From IMG/VR virus record IMGVR_UViG_3300028045_001344, positions 1-64,000 of that record: DNA of 64,000 nucleotides; one strand, given 5' to 3'. This document shows positions 50,163 through 54,756 of this stretch, piece after piece. Below the pieces are notes generated by a model that saw only the letters and a program-made list of their open reading frames with translations, had not been told where the DNA came from and did not search any database. This DNA is from a virus. The translations under genes and the position numbers were made by a program. Positions within the stretch are counted from its first letter, which is position 1, and every line of letters begins with the position of its first letter.

Positions 50163-52727
50163 TTATCCCGTCCTCAAATTTAATTTCTTATCCATTACAT
50201 TAATTACTGCGCGGGCAAATTCTCTATCATTTAATATAAGTTGCACGGTTGTGGGACCAGCCTGTGTTTGGCTTGCTTGACGCGAACCTGCTTGAACGCC
50301 TTGTTTGATATTTTGTGCGGCGGCTTGCGCGGCTCCTGCTGGAAGTGGGGTGCTACTCGGGGCGAAGGTAGATGCTAATCCAGAAGTTGCCACAACTACC
50401 TCAAGGCCGGCTTTGTCCGCCGCATCAATCGCTGATTCCAAGCCCTCCATAGACGCAGTAAACGCCACTGATTTTTTAACACTTATGTCACTCAATGAAC
50501 TACCCAAGCTTGCTAGAGCTTGAAGGTCTTCGGTTTTTATCATAGCAAGAGCAGTTGCTAATGAACCTACACCCGCAGCTATTGAAACAAATCCAGCAGC
50601 AATCGCCGGGAGGACTAAAACGTTTGGTATGAGAAGGGAAAAAAGCGCGACTATTGGGGCAATAAGACTAGCTAGACCAAAAGCGGCAATTGCAATTCCT
50701 GCCCCAATCATAAGAAATGCGGCTCCCATACCCAACAAACCAGGAATAACAACTAATCCGGCAGTCACCATCAACTTAGCCATCAGTAGCATCACCCCCA
50801 TGAAGACTACAATAGCTGCTACAGCCCCCAGGATTTGGAATCCATTCAACCCCGCAAACGCAGCCACAAGTTGCGCGACCCCAAGAGCAGCCAAGCCAAT
50901 ACCTGCGCCAACCATTAATATAGCGAAACCCAATTTCATCAGAGAGTTTCCACCACTTTTTGCTGCGGCAGCAACGCGCCTGATGCCTTGGGCTAAATTC
51001 TTAGCCATGCTTTTGCCAACCTCGGCTATAGGTTTTTTCATAGCGTCAATGGGGTGGCGCATCATTGTTGCTGTACTTATGAATAATGCCCCAATTGCGA
51101 CAAATGCTTTTATTCCCACAACAAGAGCTGCCATCACCGAAATCACAATTCCTAAAACGTGAAACACTGTTTCATTCTCACTCACAAATTCGCTTATCCA
51201 ACTAAGGACTGATGATAATACGTCCACCACCGGACCCACCGATATAGCAAAAGCCATCATTATGTTTTTGAGTTTTTCAGTTACAGCTTGAGACTTCTCA
51301 ATCATCTCATTAAGGTTTTTTTGTTTCTCCATCACTTCTTGTGAATTATTTCCAAACATTTTTCCGGCTGTATCTAGATCGGAAATACCTGCGGCGGCAG
51401 CTATAGCTTTCTTTTCAAATTTATTCAAGCTTTCCCAACTTTTACCTGATTGGGTGACGGCATCTTGCATCATCTTAATTCGTTCATCATCGCTGGCTGT
51501 GAGCAGTTCCACACTATTCAATAACGGACCACCAAGAAGCGCATTAAGTTTTCCGGCTGCTTGAGCAGCACCCTCAAAAGTATCAAATTGCTCTGTAATT
51601 CCCAGAAGGGCTTGCATTTCAATTCCTGTAGACTTTGCTGTGATAGCAAGATTCTTAAATATCCTCTCACCGGCTGCTCCATAGGCAATTAGCTTGGGAG
51701 CCGCAGCAGCAAAATCCGATGCCATCTTTGCGGGTCCAACACCGATCCCACCAGCGAACTCAGCCAATTGTGTTTGTTGCTTCATCGCACCTTCAGCAGA
51801 AAAGCCCATATGTTTTGTAAGAAGCTCTAGGTTCTGTGCTGTCGTTTCTCCACCAATGCCGAGTTTTGTTAGTGCGGCTGTTCCTTGTGCAATCGTTGTG
51901 GCTGATGCTTTGCTTAAGTTACTAAAGCTGGACATATTTGCGTGGAGTGCTCCCATCGCTGCGCCAGCTTCACCAGCACCCACTCCCAAATGAGTCATAC
52001 CGCGACTCGCATCTGAAATAGCTTCATTATAATCACCAGCCGCGCCGGTCGCCGCATTAAAAGAAGTGGCGGCTTGATCATAAGAAAGGGCGGCTGCCAT
52101 GGTTGATTGAAAAACTTTAGCTGCTGTTCCTGCCAACAAGTTCATCGGCGCAAAAGTTTCTTTTATTTGTTTCTTAAACTTTTTCTGTGCCTCAACATTA
52201 TTAGCCAGTCCGTCCAATGTTTCTGACATTTTACCCATAAAGGTTTCTTGATATTTTGAAGCAAGACCTATGGATCTACCAAGGTTGATTGCGAGTCCTG
52301 ATGCTGATTCAAGTTGCGCGTTGTGTTTTCTAGATTCCTCAGTTACTTCTTCTTGCCAATTTTTTAGTGTCTCTATTAAAAGAATCTGTTCTTTAAGTTT
52401 TTCCTCCGCTACATCTCCATCGGCAATCATGGTTGCCAATTTCTCTTGCTGTAATCTTAATGTACTAGCAAGTAATTCCTCTTGGGCTTTTAAGCGTTCA
52501 GATGATTCGCCCGTTACTTTCTCAATTGCTTGAGTGATTTCCAGTTCTTTATATGCAATCTCAAGTCTCTTATCTGAAGATTCAAGTATAAAATCTAAAA
52601 ATTGTTTTTGTTCTCGCAGATTTGCGAGGTGTTCTTTGGAATTTTGTAGGCCTTTTTTCTCCATCTCCAATTGTTCTTTTTGGAGTTTATTGAGTCTTTC
52701 TTGCTCTGCTGGAGTGAGTTTAGCCAT
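50163..52727 (-). CDS. Tail tape measure protein
   Basis: An 854-residue protein with a 150-residue coiled-coil start (L-N-K-L-Q-K-E-Q-L-E-M-E-K-K-G-L), Ala/Gly-rich helices in the middle, and three or more strongly hydrophobic segments between about 530 and 760 (F-H-V-L-G-I-V-I-S-V-M-A-A-L; G-F-A-I-L-M-V-G-A-G-I-G-L-A-A-L; V-V-I-P-G-L-L-G-M-G-A-A-F). This is the composition of tape measure proteins. The gene follows the chaperone-frameshift gene and a 112-residue gene, as in most long-tailed phages. At about 1.5 A per residue, it implies a tail near 125 nm, an estimate from general scaling. Confidence 0.88.
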   Translation of the reverse strand: MAKLTPAEQERLNKLQKEQLEMEKKGLQNSKEHLANLREQKQFLDFILESSDKRLEIAYKELEITQAIEKVTGESSERLKAQEELLASTLRLQQEKLATMIADGDVAEEKLKEQILLIETLKNWQEEVTEESRKHNAQLESASGLAINLGRSIGLASKYQETFMGKMSETLDGLANNVEAQKKFKKQIKETFAPMNLLAGTAAKVFQSTMAAALSYDQAATSFNAATGAAGDYNEAISDASRGMTHLGVGAGEAGAAMGALHANMSSFSNLSKASATTIAQGTAALTKLGIGGETTAQNLELLTKHMGFSAEGAMKQQTQLAEFAGGIGVGPAKMASDFAAAAPKLIAYGAAGERIFKNLAITAKSTGIEMQALLGITEQFDTFEGAAQAAGKLNALLGGPLLNSVELLTASDDERIKMMQDAVTQSGKSWESLNKFEKKAIAAAAGISDLDTAGKMFGNNSQEVMEKQKNLNEMIEKSQAVTEKLKNIMMAFAISVGPVVDVLSSVLSWISEFVSENETVFHVLGIVISVMAALVVGIKAFVAIGALFISTATMMRHPIDAMKKPIAEVGKSMAKNLAQGIRRVAAAAKSGGNSLMKLGFAILMVGAGIGLAALGVAQLVAAFAGLNGFQILGAVAAIVVFMGVMLLMAKLMVTAGLVVIPGLLGMGAAFLMIGAGIAIAAFGLASLIAPIVALFSLLIPNVLVLPAIAAGFVSIAAGVGSLATALAMIKTEDLQALASLGSSLSDISVKKSVAFTASMEGLESAIDAADKAGLEVVVATSGLASTFAPSSTPLPAGAAQAAAQNIKQGVQAGSRQASQTQAGPTTVQLILNDREFARAVINVMDKKLNLRTG

Positions 52728-52750: not shown

Positions 52751-53089
52751 TTATTTAAAAGGCCATTTCAAGCCAGTCTTTCTAGTAAATGCGGTAGTGG
52801 CTTGTTTAAGTTTTGACTTGTCTCTATAGGTGCGAGGGTTGTCTAAACCATAAGTGCGAAGCGAATCTATATATCTCTTTTCGCGTCCAATTGCGGTGGT
52901 AAACGAACGAATATCGCTGGGCTTCCCCTTGAGTTGAACTGGCACAGAACTGCCACCAAACATAGCACCCAGTATAGATTCAACTCCAAAACCCAACATC
53001 CTCAACCAACTCTCGTCAAGCTTGTCTCCGTTGGTTAGGTCAATTATAATAGGAGAAATTTCTTCTTCTTTCAAGTCTTCCATGGACAT
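52751..53089 (-). CDS. Small tail-region protein, 112 aa
   Basis: Contains L-D-E-S-W-L-R-M-L-G-F-G-V-E-S-I-L-G-A-M-F-G, P-V-Q-L-K-G-K-P-S-D-I-R-S-F, G-R-E-K-R-Y-I-D-S-L-R-T-Y-G-L-D-N-P-R-T, and ends T-G-L-K-W-P-F-K. The block R-E-K-x-Y-x-D-x-x-x-x-Y-G-L is one I recall from a small protein family next to the tape measure in marine myoviruses. Role unknown; a tail-assembly helper is likely from position. GAGG precedes the start by four bases; an ATG two codons later is an alternative. Confidence 0.65.
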   Translation of the reverse strand: MSMEDLKEEEISPIIIDLTNGDKLDESWLRMLGFGVESILGAMFGGSSVPVQLKGKPSDIRSFTTAIGREKRYIDSLRTYGLDNPRTYRDKSKLKQATTAFTRKTGLKWPFK

Positions 53090-53152: not shown

Positions 53153-53350
53153 CTAGCTCCGGGATTTGGATTTTCTCATTTCGGAGTCCATATGTTCTTT
53201 CTCGTCTTTTAGTTGCTTCGCCAAGCGATTTACAAACCATTCGCGTAATTGAATTGGGAGGCTGTATGCTTCGATAAAACTCCAACCACCGTGATACTTT
53301 AAGATGAAAAACTGTTCATAGGTATACTCAACGTATTCAGGCGTTAGGCC
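53153..53350 (-). CDS. Tail chaperone frameshift extension (no start codon of its own)
   Basis: An open frame of 65 codons continuing past the end of the gp26-like gene in the +1 (equivalently -2) frame. It has no ATG, GTG or TTG before well inside it, yet encodes a coherent protein-like sequence: G-L-T-P-E-Y-V-E-Y-T-Y-E-Q-F-F-I-L-K-Y-H-G-G-W, then S-L-P-I-Q-L-R-E-W-F-V-N-R-L. The frame is open upstream only as far as a TAA about 20 bases before the T7 run. It most likely is translated by frameshifting in the run, giving a longer fusion product, as for the G-GT chaperones of other phages. In related phages I recall a separate gene with the E-Q-F-F-x-L-x-Y-x-G motif here. Confidence 0.65.
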   Translation of the reverse strand, partial: GLTPEYVEYTYEQFFILKYHGGWSFIEAYSLPIQLREWFVNRLAKQLKDEKEHMDSEMRKSKSRS

Positions 53351-54173
53351 AAAAAAAGTTGGCAGAAAAGGGTATGTTTATCTGTGTGTCCGCGTCACAA
53401 CTCTCACACGAATAATCGTGGCTCAAATCAACGTTGGGCGAAGCCTTTTCATAGATTGATTTAAGATGAGTTGCATCGCGGGCAGGCATAAGATCAACGA
53501 ACTTTTCTACCAACCCCCTATCCGTTTCCCCATTGATGGAGACAATAAATAACTTATACTGATCTGTCAGATTTGTTTCTGGAAGATTATGTTTTTTTCT
53601 TTTCTCAGATTGATTGAACATTTTCTTTTCGTCGCCGCCTGTCAGGAGACGACACTCAACCGTAACATTAGTTACAGGCAATTCAATCTTAAAAGTTCCA
53701 CCAATAGAAATACTAGCTTCGTTTTCAAAATCTCCACACTCTACTTCTTCTAAGTTGAATGAATGATCAGAGGCGTTACCACATGCTGGGCATGTTACCT
53801 TTGTTTTATAGTCGGGTCCAAAACCATTTATTCTAGCCGCAATAAGTATTGCGTTTTTGTCACCTGAATATAAGTCATCAACTTTTACATCTTTATCAAC
53901 TATAATATTCTGAAGCATCCGATCAACGGCAACTCCTTTCTTTAATAGTGATTTTGATGTAAGAATATCTGTATCCTTGGCAGTCATATAACGAATCTCA
54001 AGGGACTCCTTACCGTGCAAGGGATGATCTTCAGCGTAAAACCGACCCTTTGTTGGTAAATCAACAAATTCCGTTGGTAATACAAAATCTAAAATTGAAC
54101 TTTTTTCTGTTATGGGTGGCGCTTCTGCGCCGGTTTGATCTTTAGCCCCGAGTCGATCCTCGTTTCTTGGCAT
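53337..54173 (-). CDS. gp26-like baseplate/tail chaperone (T4_baseplate, PF12322-like)
   Basis: A 278-residue protein; start at ATG 54173 with AGAGG five bases upstream. Contains F-V-L-P-T-E-F-V-D-L-P-T-K-G-R-F-Y, H-P-L-H-G-K, E-I-R-Y-M-T-A-K-D-T-D-I-L-T-S, R-M-L-Q-N-I-I-V-D, two cysteine pairs (C-P-A-C near 135; C-E-S-C near 260), and A-N-F-F-W-P at the end. This matches the family called T4 baseplate protein (gp26-like). Its place between tail tube and tape measure is that of tail assembly chaperones, and a T7 run at 53351-53357 just before its stop suggests a frameshift product. Confidence 0.82.
   Translation of the reverse strand: MPRNEDRLGAKDQTGAEAPPITEKSSILDFVLPTEFVDLPTKGRFYAEDHPLHGKESLEIRYMTAKDTDILTSKSLLKKGVAVDRMLQNIIVDKDVKVDDLYSGDKNAILIAARINGFGPDYKTKVTCPACGNASDHSFNLEEVECGDFENEASISIGGTFKIELPVTNVTVECRLLTGGDEKKMFNQSEKRKKHNLPETNLTDQYKLFIVSINGETDRGLVEKFVDLMPARDATHLKSIYEKASPNVDLSHDYSCESCDADTQINIPFSANFFWPNA
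53351..53357 (-). promoter_or_regulatory. T7 run: predicted ribosomal frameshift site
   Basis: Coding strand reads AAC TTT TTT TGG in the zero frame, five codons before the stop of the gp26-like gene. A +1 slip on TTT (or -2) keeps Phe-tRNA fully paired and continues into the 65-codon extension; a -1 slip would stop after two codons. No start codon serves the extension. Confidence 0.6.
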
Positions 54174-54198
54174 ATACACCTCTTTGTTATGTTATAAA

Positions 54199-54756
54199 TT
54201 AATTTGCGCCTTGCGCGTTAGATGGGAGCTTACCAGCGCCCTCATAGACATTGATATAAGCATTGTCGTATTTGACGGTAATGTCAACATTTTGCATTTC
54301 CTCGCTACCATAGTCGAGGTCGCCGAACTTGACATCCTTAATCCAAGCATTGTTGAGAACCCAATCTTCAACAACCGTTCCATCGGAATTTAGTTGATGA
54401 ATTGTAATTGTACCAAGGGCATTGACTGATTTAGCCTTAGAGACTGTAGCAAGTACACCATCGTTTACCGGCATTTCATATCCAGATGCTTGAAGCATTT
54501 TCATCACTGCTTGTGCTCCATTCGCCGTAGCAGAAATAACATCCACCACCGTAAAGGAAACCTCGTTCCATTGTACTCGACCGGGATAATAAAACGTATG
54601 ATTCAAATACTTGTGTTCGCTCTCTGTAATTGAAAATGAAGGTTTATTCACTTTTGAGATCAAGAAGGTAGGAATTACATTGTCCTGTCCTGCCACTGTT
54701 AAAAGGAACCTATACGATCTTTTAGGTTCCAGTTCTGGGTTTTGCCAAAATGCCAT
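54199..54756 (-). CDS. Tail tube protein (gp19-like)
   Basis: A 185-residue protein of the T4 gp19/Phage_T4_gp19 family: F-W-Q-N-P-E-L-E-P-K-R-S-Y-R-F-L-L-T-V (start), I-S-K-V-N-K-P-S-F, N-H-T-F-Y-Y-P-G-R-V-Q-W-N-E-V-S-F-T-V-V-D (the conserved strand pair), and near the end Y-G-S-E-E-M-Q-N-V-D-I-T-V-K-Y-D. It forms the inner tube of the contractile tail. AGGAG lies seven bases before the start. Order sheath, tube, chaperone, tape measure is the usual one. Confidence 0.93.
   Translation of the reverse strand: MAFWQNPELEPKRSYRFLLTVAGQDNVIPTFLISKVNKPSFSITESEHKYLNHTFYYPGRVQWNEVSFTVVDVISATANGAQAVMKMLQASGYEMPVNDGVLATVSKAKSVNALGTITIHQLNSDGTVVEDWVLNNAWIKDVKFGDLDYGSEEMQNVDITVKYDNAYINVYEGAGKLPSNAQGAN

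What the first reader, a model, noticed from the sequence alone, without database searches (positions are those of the whole stretch)
53153..53360. Programmed frameshift in the tail chaperone gene
The gp26-like gene sits between tail tube and tape measure, the place of tail assembly chaperones. Five codons before its stop is a T7 run, after which a 65-codon start-less frame in +1/-2 encodes a coherent sequence with E-Q-F-F-I-L-K-Y-H-G-G-W. Frameshifted chaperones are nearly universal in long-tailed phages but I know of none reported for gp26-like proteins of T4-like phages.
Basis: partly seen in the sequence, partly recalled or inferred. Interest (0 to 1): 0.77.

Follow-up and report, generated by a model that had tools for sequence, protein, structure and literature searches.

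The report
Plus-one frameshift in phage tail chaperone
A large group of mostly uncultured tailed phages appears to make a short and a long form of its tail-building helper protein from one gene, by letting ribosomes slip one base forward at a run of seven U's; the trick is known from related phages, but those slip one base backward.

Summary
The gp26-like gene (PF12322; 53337-54173, minus strand) ends at AAC TTT TTT TGG CCT AAC GCC TGA. An open frame without a usable start (53153-53350) continues in the +1/-2 phase and encodes a 65-residue helical domain. The arrangement recurs in 64/64 unique close relatives, 66-69 of 70 intermediate loci and most distant ones, including isolates infecting Bacillus, Listeria, Flavobacterium, Microcystis and Rhodothermus. 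The extension is under protein-level selection (pN/pS 0.22).

Best explanation: programmed +1 ribosomal frameshifting at UUU-Y (here UUU|UGG), giving tail assembly chaperone short (TAC-N) and long (TAC-NC) forms, as lambda gpG/gpGT. Natural variants that break the T7 run (TTC TTT TGG, TTT CTT TGG) allow +1 but not -2 re-pairing. The base before the run is never T here (0/66), but is always T in the cyanophage/T4-like clade (78/78 U UUU UUC), which shifts -1. A gp26 tree separates the two modes.

Not wholly new: the PRFect preprint credits Vladimirov et al. 2022 with the T4-like short/long TAC pair, and a 2025 paper credits them with poly-T -1 signals. What looks new is the +1 mode, its site and its breadth. 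There is no protein evidence yet.

The parts
53337..54173 (-). gp26-like tail assembly chaperone, short form (TAC-N), 278 aa from ATG 54173; an in-frame GTG lies at 54179
   Evidence: PF12322 E 3e-15, phrog_150 E 3e-18; only PF12322 match in the 151,553-base record; AlphaFold2 pLDDT 82
53348..53357 (-). proposed +1 frameshift site TTTTTTTGGC: P-site UUU 53354-53352 re-pairs on UUU 53353-53351, next codon GGC 53350-53348
53153..53350 (-). +1-frame extension (TAC-C), 65 codons plus stop TAG; made only as a C-terminal fusion (TAC-NC, 339 aa from ATG)
   Evidence: at least 566 relatives; pN/pS 0.22; helical domain pLDDT 91.5; best structural match Gp51 of Prochlorococcus phage P-HM1
54199..54756 (-). 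tail tube protein (gp19-like), gene before the chaperone
   Evidence: phrog_4542 E 1e-28
52751..53089 (-). 112-aa ORF of unknown function between the extension and the tape-measure ORF
   Evidence: no PHROG, Pfam or NCBIfam match beyond noise
50163..52727 (-). probable tape measure protein, 854 aa
   Evidence: position and length; no family match beyond noise, so inferred by synteny with annotated relatives

Best explanation
One gene makes two chaperones. Most ribosomes stop at 53337 and give the gp26-like short form (TAC-N). A minority slip +1 when UUU (53354-53352) is in the P site and UGG in the A site: tRNA-Phe re-pairs on the next UUU, GGC is read, and a 65-residue helical C-terminal domain is added (TAC-NC). 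By analogy with lambda gpG/gpGT, many TAC-N and few TAC-NC would coat the tape measure protein, and the extra domain would recruit tail-tube subunits. Shown here: the conserved frame relation, the conserved site, purifying selection on the extension, its lack of a start in this phage, homology of the two-part protein to cyanophage gp26+gp51, and a clean phylogenetic split between +1 and -1 phages. Inferred: that frameshifting happens, its rate, and the chaperone role.
For: Frame and site: +1 phase in 64/64 unique window-group loci and in at least 66 of 70 intermediate loci; +1 re-pairing possible at the Phe site in 64/64 and 69/69. In the distant SP-15 group, 25 of 28 loci are +1 and 20-22 of 24 scored sites allow re-pairing. 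Isolates with the same arrangement: SP-15, LIS04, GXN1, immuto, Mel-JY01, RM378. Direction: TTC TTT TGG and TTT CTT TGG variants permit +1 but not -2. The codon before the run never ends in T (0/66, background 35%), whereas all 78 cyanophage-type loci have T there within U UUU UUC and use -1. Synonymous codons are fixed at the site: GAC 32/32, TTT 63/66, TTT 65/65, CCT 63/63. Extension pN/pS 0.22; Tyr at extension codon 7, after the gp26 stop in most loci and before any ATG at codon 8, keeps its amino acid with TAC/TAT 29/28. Window-type extension vs cyanophage extension, hhalign probability 69 (0/100 column shuffles as high); the fused window and cyanophage proteins align over 263 columns with the F-F junction matched, probability 95.5; the cyanophage fusion aligns with T4 gp51 over 237 columns, probability 98.6. 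The gp26 tree puts 57 plus-one rows and one overlap row together (96/90); label changes 5 against 32 for shuffles.
Against: No peptide, reporter or ribosome-profiling data. No stimulator was found: downstream folding is near background (mean z -0.52; window -0.03). The A-site codon differs by clade (UGG, UAC, CGU), so no single slow codon explains the shift. 33 of 63 relatives have ATG at extension codon 8. Four SP-15-group loci (L211, L214, L216, L220) lack a good UUU site, and L306 appears to be -1. The direct comparison of the window extension with T4 gp51's C-terminus was not significant; the link runs through cyanophages.
Confidence: 0.85

Rival explanations
1. Programmed -2 frameshifting at the T7 run, as reported for phage Mu (from memory), giving the same fusion plus one Phe.
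For: The phase is the same, and in loci with an intact T7 run -2 re-pairing is possible (60/64 and 64/69).
Against: Variants TTC TTT TGG, TTT CTT TGG, TTC TTT CGT and TTT CTA TTC keep the frame relation but would force mismatches at -2.
Confidence: 0.07
2. Transcriptional slippage: RNA polymerase drops one U (or adds two) at the T7 run and standard translation of edited mRNA gives the fusion.
For: A homopolymer run of 7 sits at the site in most loci.
Against: The run is held at 7 and never extended by a preceding T (0/66, though 35% of codons end in T), the reverse of selection for slippage; relatives with runs of 3-4 T keep the arrangement.
Confidence: 0.04
3. The extension is a separate small protein translated by reinitiation or from its own start, as where the stop and an ATG overlap (TAATG) in Cygsa01 and LR756511.
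For: 33 of 63 relatives have ATG at extension codon 8; overlap arrangements exist in two distant phages; databases annotate the piece as separate short genes in some phages.
Against: The window and 23 other unique relatives have no ATG/GTG/TTG in the first 30 codons. 0 of 33 codon-8 ATGs have a Shine-Dalgarno-like motif, against 47 of 60 gp26 starts. Residues upstream of that ATG are conserved. The slip-site codons are fixed for no reason this model gives.
Confidence: 0.04

Closest known systems
TAC genes of T4-like phages (Vladimirov, Gautam, Davidson 2022; known here through PMC10274946, PMC12846349 and memory)
   Same: Same PF12322 chaperone family, short and long forms, C-terminal domain accessed by a frameshift at poly-T near the gp26 stop, gene beside tail tube and tape measure.
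   Different: The reported signals are -1, and T4 itself uses two genes (26 and 51). The window clade shifts +1 at C/G-UUU-UUU-UGG and has a single gene.
Lambda gpG/gpGT tail assembly chaperones
   Same: Two-part product, frameshift near the end of the first frame, position before the tape measure gene; N- and C-domain logic.
   Different: -1 shift at a G-rich site; no detectable sequence relation tested; the gp26-like model has no significant PDB match (HK97 chaperone 2ob9 at E 4.9 is noise).
Cyanophage gp26 + short 'gp51' (Sullivan et al. 2010, PMC3037559)
   Same: The short gp51 is the same extension: -1 frame, 57-66 codons after U UUU UUC in complete loci. Sullivan noted cyanophage gp51 is about 20% of full length and similar at the C-terminus.
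   Different: -1 phase, no GG after the run, T always before the run.
+1 frameshifts in Listeria phage PSA structural genes and in bacterial prfB
   Same: +1 slip of a P-site tRNA at UUU/CUU/CCC-type codons (for PSA; for prfB).
   Different: PSA cases are on proline codons before a pseudoknot or stop, in capsid and tail-shaft genes; prfB uses CUU before UGA (an upstream Shine-Dalgarno is from memory). Here the A site is a sense codon and no stimulator was seen.

Membership tests
PF12322 gp26-like chaperone (T4_baseplate) | Match to the curated model above cut-off | tested here: met
   57 bits against cut-off 24.5, residues 56-277
Frameshifted tail assembly chaperone (TAC-N/TAC-NC) | Gene lies between tail tube and tape measure | tested here: met
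   Tube 54199-54756 by PHROG; tape measure by length and synteny
Frameshifted tail assembly chaperone (TAC-N/TAC-NC) | Overlapping second frame, conserved and under protein-level selection, without its own start | tested here: met
Frameshifted tail assembly chaperone (TAC-N/TAC-NC) | Conserved slippery site near the end of the first frame | tested here: met
   YTT TGG in 64/64; fixed synonymous codons
Frameshifted tail assembly chaperone (TAC-N/TAC-NC) | Short and long products both made and needed for tail assembly | not testable with these tools
   Needs infection experiments
Known -1 TAC frameshift of T4-like phages (U UUU UUC) | -1 heptamer X XXY YYZ at the gp26 end | tested here: not met
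   X is C, G or A, never T, in 66/66; phase is +1; cyanophage-type loci 78/78 met
T4-type two-gene TAC (genes 26 and 51) | Second full-length PF12322 gene carrying the extension in frame | tested here: not met
   One PF12322 match in the 151,553-base record, whose completeness is not stated
DUF6760 (PF20546) | Match above curated cut-off 27 bits | tested here: not met
   Extension scores 15.4 bits, E 0.02; other extensions did not match

The most novel reading that the evidence does not exclude
In the gp26 chaperone lineage the mode of making the long form split once between -1 and +1 frameshifting while the protein junction (Phe-Phe) stayed the same. The +1 clade uses a minimal signal, a P-site YUU followed by Y before a sense codon, with no stop, conserved rare codon, Shine-Dalgarno element or hairpin, and selection keeps T out of the position before the run, which would block -1 slippage.
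Probability: 0.55. Interest if true: 0.65.

Novelty: new variant of a known kind. Interest (0 to 1): 0.55.

Why it matters
It corrects the reading frame and annotation of a chaperone gene in many marine and freshwater phage genomes, where the C-terminal domain is missed or called a separate gene. It gives natural pairs of homologous genes that frameshift in opposite directions at the same protein position, making the sequence rules for +1 versus -1 slippage directly testable. It also places T4 genes 26 and 51 as a duplication nested among frameshifting relatives.

Tried and rejected
DUF6760 / contractile injection system link: one decayed locus found (L308), and no further hit in about 395 genomes of the class; left as a lead. 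Downstream RNA structure: near background. PDB relatives by sequence or fold: none. Direct homology of the window extension to T4 gp51's C-terminus: not significant. Plasmid search: no match. Alignment of all nine gp26 proteins was too divergent for a pattern scan. Sequencing-error reading: rejected by independent assemblies and isolates.

Full report
What is there. The gene for a gp26-like protein (PF12322; phrog_150) runs from about 54173 to 53337 on the minus strand and ends AAC TTT TTT TGG CCT AAC GCC TGA. In the +1/-2 phase an open frame runs on to TAG at 53153-53155 and encodes 65 residues after the T run. The tail tube gene precedes it and a long ORF in the tape-measure position follows, with an unknown 112-aa ORF between. 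The window lies in a 151,553-base virus record with one PF12322 match.

Is it real. A scan with the extension alone found at least 566 encoding places in IMG/VR. In the 88 fetched loci where a gp26-like frame of the required length could be called, the extension was in the same phase, with the gp26 stop 11-26 nt into it. Unique close relatives carry TTT TTT TGG (60), TTC TTT TGG (3) or TTT CTT TGG (1). Upstream codons of gp26 vary synonymously as codon usage predicts, but at the site GAC (32/32), TTT (63/66), TTT (65/65) and CCT (63/63) are fixed; the CCT is partly explained by overlapping coding for Leu. Past the gp26 stop the extension frame has pN/pS 0.22, against 1.01 and 2.36 in the other frames. 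These counts come from related sequences, so they are not independent events.

Distant relatives. The same +1 arrangement follows the gp26-like gene in the Bacillus phage SP-15, Listeria LIS04, Streptococcus GXN1, Flavobacterium immuto, Microcystis Mel-JY01 and the huge phage LR756508, and in Rhodothermus RM378 with TTT TTT TGG. In an intermediate group of 70 unique loci the automatic longest-frame rule called 66 as +1. For L232, L250 and L285 it picked a longer -1 frame, and I judge these also +1 because a +1 frame of at least 40 codons is present in 69. L306 appears to be truly -1. The A-site codon differs by group (UGG, UAC, CGU).

The other mode. Cyanophage and pelagiphage-type loci carry U UUU UUC one codon before the gp26 stop in 78/78 unique cases, with a -1 extension of 57-66 codons in complete loci; L132 and L155 run off their contigs. 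Aeromonas 65.2, Nitratidesulfovibrio SRB7757 and Agrobacterium Atu_ph07 look the same, and further isolates are -1 as well. In several of these a stop-start overlap (for example TGATG) also allows reinitiation. In Cygsa01 and LR756511 the extension has its own ATG overlapping the stop. In T4, gp51 residues 1-201 match PF12322 (E 4e-52) and about 48 residues follow, whereas gp26 is nearly all PF12322. Cyanophage 'gp51' is this extension; Sullivan et al. 2010 noticed its short length and C-terminal similarity.

Homology of the extensions. Profile comparison gives window vs cyanophage extensions probability 69, SP-15 vs window 91.8, cyanophage vs T4 gp51 C-terminus 95.9, each above all 100 column shuffles. 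End to end, the window fusion aligns with the cyanophage fusion (95.5, 263 columns) and the cyanophage fusion with T4 gp51 (98.6, 237 columns). Window extension vs T4 gp51 directly was not significant. The predicted extension is a three-helix domain (pLDDT 91.5), and its best match among predicted viral structures is Gp51 of Prochlorococcus phage P-HM1 (probability 0.99, TM 0.80 on the target, E 0.17).

Why +1. With P-site UUU the +1 codon is UUU or UUC, perfectly paired; CUU to UUU is the prfB case. The -2 alternative fails in variants with TTC before or CTT at the site. The base before the run is never T in 66 unique window-group loci (35% of codons end in T; Asp is GAC 32/32 though GAT is commoner), while it is always T in the -1 clade. 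This mirror pattern fits selection for +1 and against -1 slippage, and speaks against transcript slippage, which should favour longer runs.

Evolution. A gp26 tree of 92 rows puts all 57 +1 rows, with LR756511 (overlap), in one group (96/90); the T4 duplication is one group (100/98) next to -1 phages; five label changes are needed, shuffles need 32. The root is unknown, so which mode came first is open. RM378 and Atu_ph07 have long branches.

Prior knowledge. The PRFect preprint cites Vladimirov et al. 2022 for T4-like phages that carry a short and a fused long TAC gene, and PMC12846349 cites it for poly-T -1 signals in T4-like TAC-N genes and reports a -1 case in Vandenendeviridae. The 2022 paper is not held. 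I found no report of a +1 shift in this family in the open-access library, which is not proof of absence.

Verdict. A well-supported programmed +1 frameshift in a gp26-like tail assembly chaperone: a new variant of a known kind. No protein has been measured.

Noticed in passing
L102:3232-3369 (Synechococcus phage S-RIM8); L312:1953-2090 (HTVC008M): Annotated 'baseplate hub assembly catalyst' (gp51) in these phages starts at an internal ATG of the -1 extension; the real product is probably a gp26-gp51 fusion.
   Followed up: yes
L211, L214, L216, L220 (SP-15-group viral contigs): These keep the +1 extension but lack a good UUU site; a CCC A(GT) a few codons on may be a proline-type +1 site like Listeria phage PSA.
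   Followed up: partly
L094 (LR756511) and L110 (Cygsa01): Extension has its own ATG overlapping the gp26 stop (TAATG), apparently independent switches from frameshifting to reinitiation.
   Followed up: partly
L308 (Bacillota genome G320): A decayed tail-like locus with a gp19-like tube gene next to a DUF6760 match; DUF6760 weakly matches the window extension (E 0.02), a possible link to contractile injection systems.
   Followed up: partly
window 52751-53089 (-): 112-aa ORF of unknown function between the chaperone extension and the tape-measure ORF, without family matches.
   Followed up: no
L306: One relative has TTC TTT TGG CCC but its extension lies in the -1 phase; either a base error or a real change of mode.
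   Followed up: no
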